Positions 51,493 to 60,673 of a stretch of DNA of 64,000 bases are shown piece after piece. The stretch is from contig NW_004457586.1 in the NCBI RefSeq assembly GCF_000313135.1, positions 644,860 to 708,859 on the forward strand. Reading direction: 5' to 3'. The notes under the pieces are model-generated. The model was not told where the DNA came from and searched no databases. It worked only from the letters and a program-made list of their open reading frames with translations. Positions within the stretch are counted from its first letter, which is position 1, and each line of letters begins with the position of its first letter. The position numbers and the translations under genes were made by a program. This DNA is from Acanthamoeba castellanii str. Neff (Eukaryota; Discosea; Longamoebia; Acanthamoebidae).

Positions 51493-52677
51493 ATGGATGG
51501 TACGCTCGCTTTGGCGCAGCTTAGTGATTCATCTAACCTGAACTCTGGCGTGGTCAGATGAATGCCAATTCAGGGAGGTCACAGTTAAATTCGGAGGGGG
51601 CGACGAAGTAAGGGTGCGTGAGCTGCATGTTGGTGCAAAAGCCAAAAGCTCGCCCTCGTCTCTCAAGGACCCAACGTCACTGCTCTACCATTTCTCTGGA
51701 TGCGCTCTGTGCGAGGCTGCAGTCGTCTTGGCCAGGTGATGCTTCCTCGGCTCACTCGCCTTCAAGATGATTGGGCTCATCAAGTCATGACTTCTCGGTG
51801 CAGGTGGGTCTATGGTAACTCGTCCCTCTTCCAGGACAAGACGGTGATGGAGCTGGGAGCCGGCTGCGGTCTGGTTGGCCTCGTCTGTGCTCACTTCGCC
51901 TCGCGCTTGTACCTCACTGATCGACTGCCCCTGGTGCGTGCACCACAGCACTTCATAGCTACGGCACATCACAAGTTGTGCTCCCCCTCATCCACCACAT
52001 TGCCTTTTCAATGTAAGGTCCTGGACAATCTGCGGCACAATGTGAGCATCAACGCTGCACTTGCCCGTAAGGGTCCGCTCTTGTGCAAGGACATCACAGC
52101 AACCGCCCAAGTGCACCACTTGGAGTGGGGTGAAGCCGACGCCGCAAGCAGAGTGGTACGTCGCTCTGCCTGATTGATGACAGCGGCACACATTCACCCG
52201 GCTGACCTTCCACGTTGTTCGCCAGTTTGATCCCGTCGATGTGGCTGTGGGATCGGAGGTAATCTACCTGTCCGCGCACGTCGACCTGCTCATGAAAGTG
52301 CTCGATGCCTACCTGCTGCCCGAGGGCGTGTTCTACCAGATCTGTGCCCAGGAGAGAGAGGTACGCCACTCCCTCGTTTCGAGCAGTGCATAAAGGCAAT
52401 GTGTTGGCTCACCCACGACGTTCTTCTTCTTCTTGCTCTTTAGGGCTTGGACCGGGTGAAGGCGAAGGTGGAGGAAAGAGGCGACTACAGGTGCGATGTA
52501 GCGCCTGTCAACATTGGCGAACTGTTCCCGCAGCGAAGCAGTACAGTTGAGGGAGGCGATGGCGACGATAGCCAGTCGTGCTGTCTACTGTTTGATCAAG
52601 TGATCGACCTCCGGCACTTCAACCCGCTCGAAGACTTCAGCTTCGTCGTCACCATCACCAAGCTCCGTTCAAAATAA
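51493..52677 (+). CDS. METTL-type (methyltransferase family 16) protein methyltransferase
   Basis: Exon 1 is only 7 nt (51493-51499); the exon from about 51559 continues in frame as MDDECQFREVTVKFGGGDEVRVRELHV, then DPTSLLYHFSGCALCEAAVVLAR. Next is WVYGNSSLFQDKTVMELGAGCGLVGLVCAHF (motif I ELGAGCGL), RLYLTD (post-I Asp), LDNLRHNVSIN, HHLEWGEAD, and DVAVGSEVIYLSAHVDLLMKVLDAYL, where SEVIY occupies the position of the family's D/E-x-x-Y motif. It ends FSFVVTITKLRSK. The overall pattern fits family 16 lysine (or arginine) methyltransferases. It is a different member from the one at 16764-18128. It is followed, only 100 nt downstream, by the FANCI gene in the same direction. Confidence 0.78.
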
Positions 52678-52777: not shown

Positions 52778-55700
52778 ATGGCAAGGACCAAAGTCTCAGC
52801 AAAGTTCGTGGCAATACTTGGTTGCATCTGCCAGCACGTTCTAACCCAAGATTTGGTGCGAAATTCAGGAAATCGACTGCCGGTAAGAGCGCCAGCAAAG
52901 GGGCGGGACCGAAGGCCGTGCCCATCAAAACGCTTGGCACGAAGCGAAGGTACACGTGCTCTTGCTGCGCTGCTGCAAGTGTCAAAAATCTGAGAGATCC
53001 TCACCCGAGCGCAGACGTCCTCAAGAAGAAGATGAGGAAAAAGGAGAAGAGGAGGAGAACGAAGTGATGAGCGAAGACGAGCAGCGTGAGGAGGAACCAA
53101 AGAAGCTGGCAGCACCCGCCAGGCGCTGTGTGCAGAGTACGTTTCTCACTCCCCCATGTCGCGAGCCGCTCATCCCACCCTAAGGCATGCCTTGCTTTCT
53201 GCGCTACTTCCAGTCCTTCAAGAAGACCCCGATGAAGCCGCCGAGGGTAGCTTGGACGATGAAATCGTGGAGATATGGGAGAACAAGATGCAGCCCCACA
53301 TGACCCAATCCCAGGTACGACGACCTGGGAACTACAGTTGAACTTACGCCTTCTTTGCAGCCTTACCCAAGCTGGCACCGTGCAGGTGAGCGGCCTATCT
53401 GCGCCGTCGGCCGACAATCAAGGCCTCGTCCGTTTGGCCAACAAGATCCAGTCGGTGCGTGTCTCGCTGAACAAGAGCGAACCACTCGAGATTGACCCTT
53501 GGATGAATGTCTCTCTGCACCACCTGCGTTCATTCAGGTGTCCGAACGCGAGCTGCTGGGGTATATCAACAAACGAACTGCGATGGAGGGCGACTTGGTC
53601 CAGTTGCTGAGGGCCATCTTTCAGGGCCTCCCCTCGTACACCGACAAAGGAAAGCAGATTCGAGGGGCTGTTCTCCACCGCGTCATGTGGCTCATCATCA
53701 AGGGCCGGCTTACGAACAAGAAGGCCGAGGAAGCCGTCAATGCTCTACTACCCGAGGTACCTGGCCTCACACACCCTCTTGTTGATGGCATCACCTTTGC
53801 GCTAATCACACGTGGCTCTTGTTATATAGATGGATGCGGTTGCAGACGAAGATTTCATTGATCTAGCCGAAGTGATTCTTTGGGGAGTCGAAAAGGGTAT
53901 GCAGCTTCCTGTGTCATTAGTCAGAGTGTTGGCTGACGCTGTTGTGGATGCTTGCCTTGCGCCTTGCCAGCTCGATCGGCCGAGGGGCGGTTTCTGGACT
54001 TCTTGCCGAAGACTCTCGCAGCGATTGAGCGCTTGTCCGCAGTGGGAGTCGATGAGCACACCAACAAGACTGGTCCGCAATACAAGAGTCACCTCATTGC
54101 TAGGTGCGAACACGTGCGCCGTTGGAATCGACGGCCTTCAGGAACTAACGTTGGTGGTATACTGGGTTAGATTGTGCGACCTTGACTGGTCTGAAGAGCT
54201 GGTCAGACAGATAACCGCCACACTGAGAGAGATCACACTTTCGCACGACGAAATGCAGCGAGTCATTCACAAGATCATCAGGTAACTGCCAATTTGTGTT
54301 GCAAGAAAACTGTTAACGGCTAACCAAACCACCCCACGCGCAACACAGCTTCTTCAAGGGGATCGACCTCAACGAGCTGCCCTCTTTGATCTATCAGCTT
54401 ATCCTGCTGGCTACCAAAGGCGCTACTGACGTCAAGGCGAGTCTGTTGCGCGGTATCGCCAACCATCTGGAAAGCGAAGGCAGGAAGTATGACGAAGAGT
54501 GCGTGTGCCGCCCCCAAGTTGCTGACTTAGCCGTTTGGCTATCGCTCAACCACTCTTGATGGCTACACTCTGTAGGAGCCCGGACAAACGCACAGCAGCA
54601 TCGGGCGATGAGCAGTTGCTTCGGCACATCGAGGGCACCGTCCTCCTGCACCTTCAGTTTGCGATCAAGCAAGACCAGGTACCAGGCGGCCACTTTCTTT
54701 TTAGCCTGCTGGTACTAATTGAGGGTTCGGGGTGCTCCTGCAGGAACTGGGTCGCGCATTCTTGAAAGTGTTCAAGAGCGAGAATTTTCCTTTGACCTCG
54801 TTCACCGTGGCTCTGCTCTTGTCGGTTGCCCGCATTCAACGATTCGCCGATCAGGCCCTCGACACCATCAAGACGGCCATTCAGGTACTGGTCCCCATCG
54901 GTCTCCCTTGGCCCAGCACAACAGTTACGGACTGACAGTCTTTATCTCGGATATAAGACCTACTACAAGGAACAGCAAAAGAAATCCAAGTCGCACTGGA
55001 TGGAGAAGATGCGACAGCACATGCCACCCACCAGTACGTGTACCCTCCATGATGGACGCATTTTATACAATTGTGATATCAACGGCCACATGTGTGGACT
55101 GTTGCAGTCAACTTGGACGCTGCGATTCTGGCGACCATCAAGCATTCGGCGTATGGCTGGGACCACATCACCCCGTCGCTCGTGCAGCTGGGGGTCATGC
55201 TGATGGATTCGGTGTCGGCCTCGTCGCCAGCTTCTTCTGTCGCCTCTGCCTCCGCTGCGTCCACCGCTTCGGCGGCCGGCACCACGTCAACCCCCACCGC
55301 GTCGTCATCCATCATTTCCGTTTCGACGCCCAACAAGTACGTGTGCCTTCTTTGTGTCCTGCCTTTGCGCTGGTTCACCGACGTCGTTCCTTTTCCGACG
55401 ACAACAGGATGCTTCTTCGGCTCGGCGTACGAATCCTTCTGGAGATCTTCAAGGTCCACGAGAGCGTAAGGAATGAGATTCTCGAACAGATTCTGTCTCG
55501 TGTGGTACGACGCGCACACTGGTTAACTTGATTCACGCATGTTTCCGAAATGAACGACTCTTGACAACACTTGCAACAGATGATCAGCGGCGAGAACAGC
55601 AATGTGTTGCAGTACATCATATTGCTGTCTTCCATCTCTCGCGAATGTCAAGATCTGCTGCTCGGCAGCGGTGGAGAGTACCTCCCGCGCATCAAGGAGG

Positions 55701-58700
55701 TCTTCGACTATTTGTCCTACGTGCCGCCCACCGTCACCCGAGCCCTGCTCGCCGCCGTCGAGGTACCCTCATTCATAGCCAACTGCAGTACTTCGCTGCC
55801 CATACTCATGTCGGTCTGTTCACCCCTCTGCAGCCCATCATGGCAATCAATCCGTCCTTCCAAGACCACATCATCCTCGTTTTGCGCAAGGCCATGTTCT
55901 CGCGGTTCTCTCTCACTCGAAGGCCATCGCCCTGTCACTCGATGCTAACTCTTTCTCTTTCAGGGAGCTGGAGTCTCGGCTCACGGCTGTGACCGGCTTC
56001 GAGCACCTGCTGAAGAGCTGTGCACGCAAGAAAAACAAACACGAAGCCCAGAAAGGTACCATCTAGCTAGAGTGTAGGCCTTGCATTGAAGGCTCGGCCA
56101 GGTACTGAGCAAACTCGTCTCTTTGAACCAGCCGAACTGTTCTCTCTGGAGATGATCGGTTTCCTACGCCGGTGCCTGAGCCAGCAGTGGGAAATCCGAG
56201 CTCGCCTCTACGACGCGTTGACGGAAGTATTCAAGTCAAGGTACCGAGGCGAGCTGCATCACCCGACATCGTAGAAGGGTTGTTCTTACTCAGCTGCGAT
56301 GCTGCGCCCACAGCCACTCGCTCGCGGTAAAGGAGGCCATACTGGAACTGCTCTTGCAGCACTTCATGCACTTCCTCGAGACCGATCCCTCGGTATCGGC
56401 GCCCATCAAGCTGGACAAGTGCGTCGAGGTCTCGCAAACCTCAGCTGCCACCGTGAAACGGGTACCACAATCACTTCTTTTGTTGCGCTCTTGTTGGCTT
56501 TGGTCTTACTTGAGCGCTTGAACACTCTTCACCTGCAGCTGGAGCCCCTGGGCAACCTGATCAACGCCATCCAGCGGTGTGTCATGGACTACAAATTGGC
56601 GATGGTGAAACGCCAGTCCAGCCCTGGTACCGCGTTTTGCCTGCTGCGTGCAATTCGCATGAGCTGTTGATGCACCTCTGTCTCACCCTCCGGTCAGATC
56701 ATACGCCGAGCGACCCACTCCCGGTCTTCGAGGAACTGCAAGCGTCACTGGACTCCCTGGTCGAGAAACTGCTCAAGACCGAGGTACGTGATGTGCACCT
56801 TTGGTAATACGCGTCGTCAAGTGAATTGTGGTTCACGTCGAGTTTGTGGCGCCGTGGTTCACAGTTGGAAGACTTCAGCCTCGACAAGTCGGCCGACTAC
56901 TCCGACACGTCCTGCGAGGGCAGATTCCACCAGGAAGCGGCTTTGGTCCTTCTCTCGACGTTCGAGGTGAAGAAGAGCCTTCCAACCTTGCTTTTTCCTC
57001 AATTAACTTTGTTTGATAACAAACTCACTCTGTCCTGCCGCATGCGAGCTAGGTGCTTATCGACTACTCCGTGATGCGAGAAATGCCTGAACCGCCTTCA
57101 GCCGACTCGCTAAAAGTGGCCATCGACCTGTTCACCGTACGTGCTGTTCCAAGACTTCAAACTCCTCGGCTCAACCGCTCCACGTCTGGTGTTGGTTGAT
57201 GGTTGGTTTCTTTGTGGTGTGCTGCAGCACTACGAGACGCTCCAGATGGTGGTCAAGGACGCCACTGCGAAGAAGGCCAAGGGCGGTGCAAAGGGCGGAG
57301 CGAAGGACAAGGCCAAAGACACCATCGTCGCCAGCGGCAGCAGCGGCAGCCAGAAGGGCAAAGGCAAGGGGAAGGAGAAGGACCTCGACGAAGTCGGCGA
57401 TGAGGCAGAAGCGAAGCCCAAGAAGGCCGCCCGGGGACGTGGCCGCCCAGGCGCAGGAGCCCCCAAGCGGCACAAGCTCGTCGAGGTACGTACATTCCGT
57501 CCTCCTCCCTAACCACGTCATCAATGGTAGGCCCTTTGTCTGAGTGGCCTCTCACGCTCGCAATGCAGGGCGCCTTCCTTGAGCTGAACTGTGTGCTGGG
57601 CTTGATCAAGCTTCTGGTCGAAGAAGTGGAGGACTCGTCCCAAAGCGGTACTGCAGCCTCCATGGGCAAAATCGATCAATGGAGGCCAGATTGGGGACTT
57701 GACGTCTCACCGAGGCTCTTTGCTCCAGGCGACGCCAACGCCGTGCAACGGCTCATTCGCGCCAACCAAGCGTTCCAGTCCTACTTCTTCACTGCCGCCC
57801 ACAACATGCTCAACTCGGTACCGAGAGTCCTCTTTACAGCCTTCGTCTTCCCTTCGTCTTGTTTTTCATGATCACTCACCCTCGCCCGTTGCAGTGGAAT
57901 GAGGAGGTGCAAGAGGGCGTGGGCTTGGAGTTGGGAGATGGACGCAGTAGTTTGCTTCGGTCGCGGGCCAAGTTCTGCTCTGAGGTACGCCGAGAACGCA
58001 CCTTCTTCTCGCCTGGCGAGGCAGCAACGAACCAACCATTTTTATCTGATTATTTTATTTATTTTCCACGTCACACACCACAGGCGAGTTCGTACATACT
58101 TCAGGAGTTCGTGTCTGCGCACCTCTCCGCCGACAGCAAGGTGACCTACGCCTTCATTCACTTTTGCTGTTCGACCTACCTCCAACACAACCTCACGGCT
58201 CTTCTTTTCTCGACCACAGAACAAGAAGATCGCGCAAGTCCAGCTGGAGTGTCTCGAACAGAGCCTACGCTTCCTCGTGACCCAGGTGCGCCGTCGTCCA
58301 CTACGAGTCGTTGGCGTTCGACGCTACCTAGACTGACGCCATGGGCCTGTGCAGTGGGGACCCAGGAAGGTGGCCTTGCTCTTGAAGGAGTCGCTTCTGC
58401 CCCACCTGGCCAACTATCAGGACGTGGAGGCCGAGGTGCCGGAGGCGGAGGAGGACCAACCTCCGCTCGAGGCCGAGGCCATCATTCACAACACCCTCGT
58501 TCGCTTCGAGGCCATCATGCTGCAGCTCGCCAAGTCGAAGCGGTACAAGGAGGCCGAGGTGTTCAAGGACATCATCGAACTGCTCTTCGAGTTCCTGCGA
58601 TCGCCCGGGTCGGTCAAGGTACACGTGTTCTCCACTCGTCATCGCAATCGATTGCGGCACCGCACACGACGCAACACAACACGACCCATGACACACACAC

Positions 58701-60673
58701 ACTCCCTCAACACATCATCCCTCGTCCGCGCACAGGAGCTTGTGCCGGTGCATGCCAAGCTGATGAACATCGCCTGCGGCGAAACCGCAATCGAAAACGC
58801 GGCCGCCGCCAAGTGGATGGTCTCCCTCTTCCTCAAGATCGCACGGTCCCTGCCCAAGATGAACATCGTATCTATACTCACCCACCCACCCACCCACCCC
58901 GCTTCGTCACCAATCATCAAACTAACACCCACCTTTCCCAAATGTTCGTCTCGTTCAGTTGAATGCGTTGGCGGTCGACGTGCATGTGCTGGGCCATGTC
59001 ACAGAAGAGGATCCGTCTAATCAGGTGCGATCTTGGTGGCCCAATATGGCCGATTCGACTTGCGGAGCATAGATCAGGTCTGAACTCACCATTTGTGGCC
59101 ACAAAACAAACTCCAGGCTCGCCGCTACCCGCTCATCAACAAGGCCACGGTTTCGCAGATCCTGCCGCTCATCACCAGCACCATCGACAGCTCGCTGGAC
59201 GAGGTCGAGCAAGTGCTGGTCATCTCCAAGAGCATGTATCTCGAAGGTACGTACAGACTGCGGAGAAGCGCCACCTTGTCCGGTAACCACATGCGCTGAT
59301 ATCTCATTGGCCTCGCACCACGCGCACCATCGCACACGACACATGGGCAGACAAGGAGCAGGATCAGCAGTACGACGAGAGCGAGGATGAGGGCGAAGAC
59401 AAGACCGCAGGGCTGACCGCGCGAGCCAGGCTGCTGATGAGCGAGTGCTGCAAACAACTTCACGTGCGTACCGCGCCCTGCTCCCAATACGGGCCACTGC
59501 TTCATTCATAACCCGCGCGGTGCGTTTCTTTTGTTTATTTGTACGTACGCACCACCAACAGTTGCTGCTGAAGGTGCTCTCGTCCATCGTGACGTCGGCC
59601 ATTCCGCTCCTGTGCGCTGAGGGACTGGTCAAGGCGCTCGTCCACCTCTACAAGATCCTGTCGCAGCTCTCCAAGACGGTACGTCAACAGACCACCGCAC
59701 ACCAGGCCTCGGCCGAGGCCTGGTTGGTTGGTTGGTTGGTTGGTTGAACATTATGTGTGTGGTCATGCGCGCAGGCCATGCAATTGCAGCTGCGTCCGTC
59801 AGAGACGTTCCAGGAGCTGGTCAAGCACAGCGGCAGGGACTTCACGCCCACCATCTACGAACTCCTCGCCTACATCGAGAAGCCCCAGGACATGGAAGGT
59901 ACGCGTGCCGTGTTGGGACGTACCTGCCTTGTCGGCGAAGAAGAGTTCACCATTCGTTCTCACCACTCGTTCGTCGTCTCCACACAGATGAGCATGTCGA
60001 CAAGGCGGAGAGGCTGACCAAGGCCAAGCTCAAGCGACTCGCCACCCTCCTGCCCAACCTCATCTTCCTGATCGAGCAATTTGAAGTACACCCTCTTTTT
60101 TTTTGTAAGCTGCACAGCCAACGTTGCCTCGCGCTAACTCGACGATGATTGTTGCTTCCCTCTGCAGAGCGTGTTGATTCGCTACGGCAAGAAGTTCAAG
60201 GTCAACCTCGTGGAGGGGTTCCGTCGCAGGTGCGCGCCTGGCTACCTCCACCACACGCTCACCCTCTCGCACCACCAGAGAAGAAAAGGTGGTTGGTTGC
60301 AATTCTGACGGACGCTTCCCGCGCACCACTGTCACAGCACTACGCGGGACTTCCGCATTGCGAGCAGCAACCTGAAGAAGCAGGACGACATGCCCCCACC
60401 CCCGCCAAAGGTAGGCTTTCACCTCCTCTCGTGCTAGAAGCTAGAATCCAAAAAGGCGACTGACACTTGGTCCGTGTGTGATGCGTCATGGCATGGCTGC
60501 AGAAGAAGACGAAGACGACGCAACCAAACGCCGCGGCGGCGACAAGCGCGCCGACAACCAAGGCTCCGGCTCGCGCTGCAGGGCTCAAGCGAAAGGGTCC
60601 CGCAAGTGATGACGCCCAGGCAGCGACCGCCAAGTCCACCGCCACCTCCTCCAAAAAGAAGAAGAGTGACTAG
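52778..60673 (+). CDS. FANCI: Fanconi anemia complementation group I protein with an H3-tail-like N-terminus
   Basis: FANCI pairs with FANCD2 as the clamp that marks DNA crosslinks. The FANCI body runs from about 53430 to the end in some 25 exons. Signatures include ISFFKGIDLNELPSLIYQLI, RHIEGTVLLHLQFAIK, RIQRFADQALDTIKTAI, IRILLEIFKVHESVRNEILEQIL, HIILVLRKAMFSRELESR, RRCLSQQWEIRARLYDAL, KTELEDFSLDKSADYS, and LLPNLIFLIEQFESVLIRYGKK then TTRDFRIASSNL. It ends in a Lys-rich tail (SSKKKKSD), which likely binds DNA. Upstream, exons 52778-52803, 52869-52949, 53015-53136, 53214-53314 and 53386-53456 join in one frame and give MARTKVSAKKSTAGK..., a basic RRR patch, an acidic run, then the FANCI body. 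The family's ubiquitinated Lys is replaced by Leu (codon 55980-55982). A Lys/Ala-rich insert near 57260-57480 is unusual. Confidence 0.9.

What the first reader, a model, noticed from the sequence alone, without database searches (positions are those of the whole stretch)
52778..53136. FANCI homologue that begins with a histone H3 tail mimic
By joining GT-AG exons 52778-52803 and 52869-52949 the protein starts MARTKVSAKKSTAGK. Against the H3 tail (A-R-T-K at 1-4, K9-S10-T11, G13-K14, K18), after Met removal 11 of the first 18 positions match, including K4, K9, S10, K14 and K18. The frame continues through a basic patch and an acidic exon (53015-53136) and further junctions into the FANCI body without a stop. 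If real, this repair clamp could be read by H3K4/K9 writers, readers or erasers, or compete for them. I know of no H3-mimic N-terminus on FANCI.
Basis: partly seen in the sequence, partly recalled or inferred. Interest (0 to 1): 0.88.

Follow-up and report, generated by a model that had tools for sequence, protein, structure and literature searches.

The report
Repair protein wearing a histone tail
An amoeba's DNA-crosslink repair protein FANCI really does begin with a look-alike of the histone H3 tail, and a few other proteins in the same genome, some of them in DNA-damage families, carry such tails too, which hints that cells may use the histone code to steer non-histone proteins.

Summary
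ATG 52778 is the first ATG after the upstream gene's stop, and the joins 52803|52869 and 52949|53015 are right: a database protein (P0001, 1559 aa, one 5686-base contig, shorter than the 7.9-kb gene and so almost certainly spliced RNA) begins MARTKVSAKKSTAGKSASKGAGPK and runs on into FANCI. H3 is matched at 11 of 18 positions; one of 2,000,000 shuffles reached 11. None of the other 22 FANCI hits has such a start.

It is not alone. The genome encodes near-perfect H3 tails at the start of a zf-PARP zinc-finger protein and a vWA-RING protein, a partial one on an unknown protein, and an internal one in an ankyrin gene that probably ends in a PARP domain. Of the 120 listed vWA-RING relatives (247 found), 56 start with an H3-like tail, among them proteins named from rotifers, sponges and a fungus.

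Best reading: an N-terminal H3 mimic like PAF15's, docking FANCI onto an H3-tail reader. A PHD finger lies beside a weak, below-cut-off SRA match on the same contig. Docking is inferred. Conservation of the tail among amoeba FANCIs, its modifications and its partners are untested.

The parts
52778..52803 (+). FANCI exon 1: M-ARTKVSAK(K), start of the H3-like tail
   Evidence: same N-terminus in P0001
52804..52868 (+). Intron 1 (65 bases, GT-AG, donor GTTCGT)
   Evidence: absent from P0001
52869..52949 (+). FANCI exon 2: (K)KSTAGKSASKGAGPKAVPIKTLGTKR(R), rest of the H3-like tail; K9, S10, T11, G13, K14, K18, K23, A24 match H3
53015..53136 (+). FANCI exon 3: end of the KRRR patch (residues 34-37 with Met) and an acidic stretch (EEDEEKGEEEENEVMSEDEQREEE)
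53214..53454 (+). FANCI exons 4-5: end of the N-terminal extension; residue 126, in exon 5, aligns with position 16 of solved FANCI chain 3s4w, so about 110 residues are extra
52778..60673 (+). Whole FANCI coding region, 41 exons in the splice model (small exon borders differ from P0001 at four places); Pfam FANCI S1, HD1, S2, HD2, S4
51622..52677 (+). Upstream neighbour: Methyltransf_16 (lysine methyltransferase family) gene, its stop 100 bases before the FANCI ATG; exon structure not modelled
   Evidence: Pfam match in frame 51622-52173; the piece 52444-52677 has none

Best explanation
This genome's FANCI carries a real N-terminal histone-H3 mimic. After removal of Met (inferred from Ala at position 2) the free end A-R-T-K is identical to H3 1-4, and lysines sit where H3 has K4, K9, K14, K18 and K23. 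I think it most likely works as a docking hook: a reader of the H3 N-terminus, such as a PHD finger, perhaps on a UHRF1-like SRA protein at a crosslink, grips the FANCI tail as it would H3 and so delivers or holds the FANCI-FANCD2 clamp, as UHRF1's PHD finger grips the H3-like N-terminus of PAF15. Shown: the tail, its place on the spliced FANCI frame (P0001), a match beyond composition, the same device on other proteins of the genome. Inferred: Met removal, reader binding, role in crosslink repair.
For: P0001 has the tail on FANCI. Match beyond composition. 8 of the 11 identical residues use other codons than either of the two H3 genes found, so it is no recent copy of H3 DNA. Same genome: exact H3 1-18 before a zf-PARP domain, 17 of 18 before a vWA-RING protein, ARTKQAARK on an unknown protein, internal ARTKQTARK in an ankyrin gene. 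In 56 H3-tailed vWA proteins T3, Q5 and A7 are kept in 56 and T6 in 55, but K4 and K9 in 45, so the kept feature is the H3 N-terminal peptide more than its charge. PHD binding to PAF15 needs little more than the first residues: 2.2 uM against 1.5 uM for H3, lost on R3A or T4D, little changed by K5A (PMC7060239, section 7 read in full); FANCI has exactly ARTK. FANCD2 is present. SRA matches exist at three loci, one of them with a PHD finger about 1.5 kb on whose nearest solved relatives are DIDO1 and CXXC1 PHDs. UHRF1 binds crosslinks through SRA and is needed for FANCD2 recruitment in human cells (PMC4386029, abstract and passages).
Against: FANCI's tail is weaker than the others: V5, S6 and K8 stand where the vWA family keeps Q5 (56 of 56), T6 (55) and R8 (51). 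No second amoeba species was at hand, so conservation in FANCI is unknown; P0001 is nearly identical (2 substitutions in 1241). Of 23 FANCI hits only P0001 has the tail. The SRA match beside the PHD is below Pfam's cut-off (26.4 and 24.5 bits against 30.7), and my model of that gene spans both frames but splices out part of the PHD, so an SRA-PHD protein is unproven. The clearer SRA genes (C154, C148) showed no PHD in the frames scanned. No binding data.
Confidence: 0.4

Rival explanations
1. The tail is a writer substrate, not a hook: histone enzymes (methylases, acetylases, an E3, or a PARP at the K-S site) modify FANCI as they modify H3, and the mark regulates the clamp.
For: K4, K9, K14, K18, K23, S10 and T11 are kept; mouse UHRF1 ubiquitylates PAF15 at K15 and K24, spaced as in H3 (PMC7060239, passages); other H3-tailed genes here are a zf-PARP protein, a vWA-RING protein and an ankyrin gene near a PARP domain.
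Against: In the 56 tailed vWA proteins K4 and K9 vary (45 kept each) while T3, Q5, T6, A7 hardly do. R8 of the A-R-K-S/T motif is K in FANCI. HPF1 was not found, but that search had no positive control and says little.
Confidence: 0.22
2. The tail is a nuclear-import or DNA-contact segment; H3's own tail is an importin signal (recalled), and the likeness comes from shared basic, small-residue composition.
For: Eight lysines in 35 residues; role of H3 tails in import (recalled, no call).
Against: Shuffles of the same composition reach 11 of 18 once in 2,000,000; a KRRR patch follows at residues 34-37, so a second import signal would be redundant; import does not need an A-R-T-K start (inference).
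Confidence: 0.2
3. The tail is a fossil of a fusion with an H3 tail cassette and has no present function.
For: In the ankyrin gene the exon begins two bases before ARTK, as if a tail exon had been inserted; one vWA protein, P0053, still matches the Histone Pfam model at residues 7-55, though below its cut-off (23.4 against 26.4 bits).
Against: The zf-PARP and vWA tails keep 18 and 17 of 19 residues although 11 and 9-10 codons differ from the H3 genes, which points to selection on those proteins; in FANCI all five lysines are kept. For FANCI itself there is no direct test of selection.
Confidence: 0.14
4. The join is a gene-model artefact and the H3-like exons belong to another gene.
For: The first donor, GTTCGT, occurs once among the 31 mapped introns; the first loose model read exon 2 differently.
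Against: P0001 has the join on a contig shorter than the gene; no histone domain in it.
Confidence: 0.02

Closest known systems
PAF15/PCLAF H3-like N-terminus read by the UHRF1 PHD finger (PMC7060239, section 7 read)
   Same: Non-histone protein at DNA with an H3-like free N-terminus (VRTK against ARTK) and lysines spaced as in H3
   Different: PAF15 is a PCNA-bound protein; here the tail sits on FANCI and matches H3 further (11 of 18); binding is not shown
SNAG-domain H3 mimics of SNAI1/GFI1 that bind LSD1 (recalled, no call)
   Same: N-terminal H3 mimicry as a hook for a histone enzyme
   Different: Other sequence, transcription factors; not tested here
H3K9-type mimics in G9a and LIG1 (recalled; a K126 site read by the UHRF1 Tudor domain is mentioned in the abstract start of PMC7585203)
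   Same: Non-histone copies of an H3 tail site, LIG1 being a replication and repair protein
   Different: Internal and K9-type (recalled); FANCI lacks A-R-K-S/T
FANCI of animals, plants and fungi
   Same: FANCI Pfam domains; alignment to solved FANCI chain 3s4w over residues 126-918 and 1208-1491
   Different: In the other 22 hits no stretch in the first 120 start positions matches H3 1-18 at more than 5 places

Membership tests
FANCI | FANCI solenoid and helical domains | tested here: met
   S1, HD1, S2, HD2, S4 in P0001, each over its cut-off; the S1-cap and S3 models seen in animal hits were not reported for P0001
FANCI | Monoubiquitylated lysine in LRKAMF | tested here: met
   K655 of P0001 aligns, by my count on the printed alignment, with position 522 of chain 3s4w; that this is the modified site is recalled
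FANCI | FANCD2 partner in the genome | tested here: met
   one PF14631 match at C207:784794-784967, E 1.5e-7, profile 1292-1350 of 1418
N-terminal H3 mimic (PAF15 type) | R-T-K behind a small or hydrophobic first residue at the protein start | tested here: met
   M-ARTK at the start of P0001
N-terminal H3 mimic (PAF15 type) | Free N-terminus after Met removal | not testable with these tools
   Ala at position 2 favours it (recalled rule)
N-terminal H3 mimic (PAF15 type) | Binding by a PHD finger or other H3 reader | not testable with these tools
   needs peptide binding
H3K9 mimic (A-R-K-S/T) | A-R-K followed by S or T | tested here: not met
   sequence is A-K-K-S-T
Histone H3 | Histone fold | tested here: not met
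   no Histone domain reported for P0001

The most novel reading that the evidence does not exclude
Eukaryotes have a shared tail code outside histones: a widespread family of vWA proteins, many with a RING or U-box, and in this amoeba also FANCI, a zf-PARP protein and an ankyrin-PARP, carry the H3 1-9 to 1-18 sequence so that one set of H3 readers and writers controls both nucleosomes and the DNA-damage machinery.
Probability: 0.28. Interest if true: 0.92.

Novelty: new variant of a known kind. Interest (0 to 1): 0.75.

Why it matters
Histone mimicry is known from a few animal proteins and from pathogens (recalled, apart from PAF15). Here it sits on a central crosslink-repair clamp in a protist, with further copies on zf-PARP, vWA-RING and ankyrin proteins, and H3-tailed vWA proteins reach from this amoeba to rotifers and sponges. 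If the tails are read, the histone code is also an address label for other proteins, and a short peptide gives a simple test. It would also offer a direct molecular link between H3-tail readers at crosslinks and loading of FANCI-FANCD2.

Tried and rejected
Rejected: chance; recent copy of H3 DNA; separate H3-variant gene; MARTK alone as evidence (27 hits against 11 in the control; several of the frames stop within a few dozen codons). C218:354024 (3 mismatches) and the weak hits on C9, C61 and C124 were read as chance. P0025 is a histone H3-PPR fusion, taken as a gene-model error and set aside.

Led nowhere: FANCI and the H3-tail pattern in viral contigs, no hit; HPF1, no hit and no positive control; C148 protein, no Pfam match. 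Literature: ten searches listed nothing on an H3-like FANCI or on H3-tailed vWA proteins. I saw titles and abstract starts only, and for only part of the papers found (20 of 42, 20 of 80, 10 of 96, 12 of 27); the library is open-licence papers.

Limits: the three protein searches are spent and gave no second amoeba FANCI. In the vWA search 120 of 247 hits were listed and those 120 checked. The tree used 87 of the 120: 57 with a tail within the first 40 positions and 30 of the 63 without; of the 33 left out at least one, P0112, has a U-box and no tail. Gene models outside the window are mine and unconfirmed: for C146 the automatic models spliced out part or most of the H3 tail and I set the exons by hand; for C143 the model ran on into a next gene and I cut it behind the RING (the database protein P0024 ends at the same place); for C148 I joined exons of two models by hand. 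That 'lgn' means read assemblies (Logan) is recalled.

Full report
What was claimed.

The sequence reads ATG at 52778, exon 1 to 52803, exon 2 52869-52949 and exon 3 53015-53136. Between the stop of the upstream gene (52675-52677) and 52778 there is no ATG in any + frame; the frame of the ATG is open upstream but without Met. A small splice model, started at this ATG and scored on exons picked by eye further down the gene, returned the same three exons and a gene of 41 exons ending at 60673; an earlier and looser run had cut exon 2 short and run into later genes. A database search with the model returned P0001, 1559 residues from one 5686-base contig. The gene spans 7,896 bases with about 40 introns, so an uninterrupted frame in a 5.7-kb contig almost certainly comes from spliced RNA. 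P0001 is identical to the model over residues 1-262. Walked onto the window it shows 31 introns, each GT-AG, and 2 substitutions in 1241 residues, after which a one-residue length difference stopped my walker. The larger differences from my model, at residues 263-281, 1069-1075 and 1385-1389, look like places where the model chose other splice sites (the first two confirmed).

It is FANCI. P0001 matches the Pfam models FANCI S1, HD1, S2, HD2 and S4 and solved FANCI chains from residue 126, which aligns with position 16 of chain 3s4w. The lysine of LRKAMF, recalled as the ubiquitylated one, is kept (K655). FANCD2 has one match elsewhere in the genome. The roughly 110 extra residues are the H3-like stretch, a KRRR patch and an acidic stretch, then a linker.

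The H3 likeness is real. Residues 1-18 without Met agree with H3 at 11 positions, 1-24 at 13, and lysines stand at 4, 9, 14, 18 and 23. Shuffling the same 35 residues reached 11 once in 2,000,000; 1,659 unspliced ATG peptides of the window reached at most 6. Eight of the 11 identical residues are coded by other codons than in either of the two H3 genes found. The MARTK pattern alone is near chance: 27 hits, control 11. The other 22 FANCI proteins of the search reach at most 5 of 18 in their first 120 start positions.

It is not alone. A pattern for M-ARTKQTARKS with up to 3 mismatches found 6 places in the genome, the reversed control none: two H3 genes, a gene on C143, one on C146, one on C148 and one chance-like place on C218. 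Without the Met and with 2 mismatches the 6 places were the two H3 genes, C143, C146, C148 and an internal place on C175; here the reversed control gave 2. C146 reads the exact ARTKQTARKSTGGKAPRK in one open frame with the start of a zf-PARP zinc finger; automatic splice models used a GT inside or just behind the tail, so the exon is my hand model. C143 has ARTKQTARKSVGGKAPRK before a vWA domain and a C-terminal RING. C148 has ARTKQAARKREPDEEE on a protein without Pfam match. C175 has an exon reading LRGG-ARTKQTARKVWPGNAPKKMA in frame on both sides, ankyrin repeats following it by Pfam and preceding it by eye. A PARP catalytic match lies about 8 kb downstream on the same strand, with a withheld stretch between, so ankyrin-PARP is an inference.

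The search with the first 60 residues of C143 returned 4 hits of 69 candidates: a close relative P0024 (E 5e-22), and three with E above 1, of which Rotaria socialis P0026 has a first 19 residues identical to the amoeba's while the whole is 41% identical by multiple alignment or 34% by BLAST, P0027 is an AAA ATPase with DUF7025 and the same tail behind MAFSFT, and P0025 is an H3 fusion, likely a gene-model error.

An H3-tailed vWA family. A whole-protein search with P0024 gave 247 hits, 120 listed. Of these 120, 56 begin with Met and match H3 1-18 at 7 or more positions directly behind it. Source names include Adineta and Rotaria (rotifers), Oscarella, Corticium, Sycon and Oopsacas (sponges, recalled), Endogone (fungus) and a Phypoly transcript, which I take as Physarum. 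Of eight tailed members scanned, three have RING, two a U-box and three neither. In the 56, T3, Q5 and A7 do not vary and T6 varies once; A1 48, R2 52, K4 45, R8 51, K9 45; likeness to H3 fades behind residue 17 (K18 31, residue 19 6 of 56). This count selects for likeness, so it shows which positions vary, not how many relatives have tails. A quick tree of 87 bodies with the tails cut off puts 27 tailless proteins (two named as archaea, most unnamed) on one side of a branch with support 100; on the other are the 57 tailed rows and three tailless ones: P0031, which starts at GGKAPR, P0066, which starts inside the body, and P0079. The label needs 4 changes, at least 2 forced by starred branches, and several rows are long, so one origin is possible but not shown. 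33 tailless hits were not in the tree, P0112 with a U-box among them.

How it may work. PAF15 shows the principle: the UHRF1 PHD finger binds its N-terminal VRTK as it binds H3 ARTK, with 2.2 against 1.5 uM, lost on R3A or T4D and little changed by K5A (PMC7060239, section 7), and mouse UHRF1 ubiquitylates K15 and K24, spaced as in H3 (passage). UHRF1 binds crosslinks by its SRA domain and is needed to recruit FANCD2 (PMC4386029, abstract and passages). The present genome has SRA matches at C154 and C148 over the cut-off and at C78 below it (26.4 against 30.7 bits). At C78, the contig that holds FANCI, a PHD finger follows the weak SRA match by about 1.5 kb; its nearest solved relatives are the PHD fingers of DIDO1 and CXXC1. 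My gene model spans both frames but splices out part of the PHD, so one SRA-PHD protein is possible, not shown. I therefore propose that FANCI's tail is a hook for an H3-tail reader, perhaps this one. This step is inference. The strongest results against it are FANCI's V5, S6 and K8 against the Q5, T6 and R8 of the vWA family, the weak SRA match, and the lack of a second amoeba species. In PAF15 the contacts described are to the first four residues, which FANCI keeps.

Novelty. N-terminal H3 mimicry is a known kind; on FANCI I found no report in ten searches of an open-licence library, seen as listings. The H3-tailed vWA family and the other tailed genes may be the larger find. Only FANCI and, by domain, the zf-PARP and probable ankyrin-PARP genes point to DNA damage; the vWA-RING and C148 proteins have no such evidence.

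Change after checking: the confidence of the hook reading was lowered slightly (0.42 to 0.40), the fossil rival raised (0.12 to 0.14), the novel case lowered (0.30 to 0.28) and the interest lowered (0.76 to 0.75), because the SRA match beside the PHD is below Pfam's cut-off, the ankyrin-PARP link crosses a withheld stretch, and P0053's histone match is below its cut-off.

Noticed in passing
L055 (G000:C143:33000-40000), gene from locus base 1204: vWA-RING protein with an N-terminal H3 tail (17 of 18); 56 of the 120 listed relatives also start H3-like, among them rotifer, sponge and fungal ones.
   Followed up: yes
L056 (G000:C146:108000-115500), minus strand, start at contig base 114293: 316-residue hand model: exact H3 1-18 tail followed by a zf-PARP zinc finger and a Q-rich region.
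   Followed up: partly
L058 (G000:C175:18000-24000), minus strand, contig bases 21698-21760: Internal LRGG-ARTKQTARKVWPGNAPKKMA in an ankyrin gene, a PARP catalytic match about 8 kb downstream; LRGG is the ubiquitin C-terminal motif (recalled), so a cut there would expose an H3-like N-terminus.
   Followed up: partly
L057 (G000:C148:231000-238000), minus strand, start at contig base 236963: MARTKQAARKREPDEEE on a protein without a Pfam match.
   Followed up: no
P0027 (database protein, source lgn): AAA ATPase with DUF7025 carrying ARTKQTARKSVGGKAPRKQLA behind MAFSFT; the same T11V change as the vWA tails of this amoeba and of Rotaria socialis.
   Followed up: no
window 51622-52677: Methyltransf_16 (lysine methyltransferase family) gene directly upstream of FANCI, 100 bases between its stop and the FANCI ATG.
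   Followed up: partly
L022 (G000:C124:22762-22776, minus strand): A protein that looks like dihydrofolate reductase (by eye, no search) also starts MARTK but shows no further H3 likeness; taken as chance.
   Followed up: no
P0055, P0060, P0062, P0067: A side branch of the vWA family (P0055 and P0060 named Adineta) with a changed tail MGHTQQTACKS: the H3 likeness is lost at A1, R2, K4 and R8 together.
   Followed up: no
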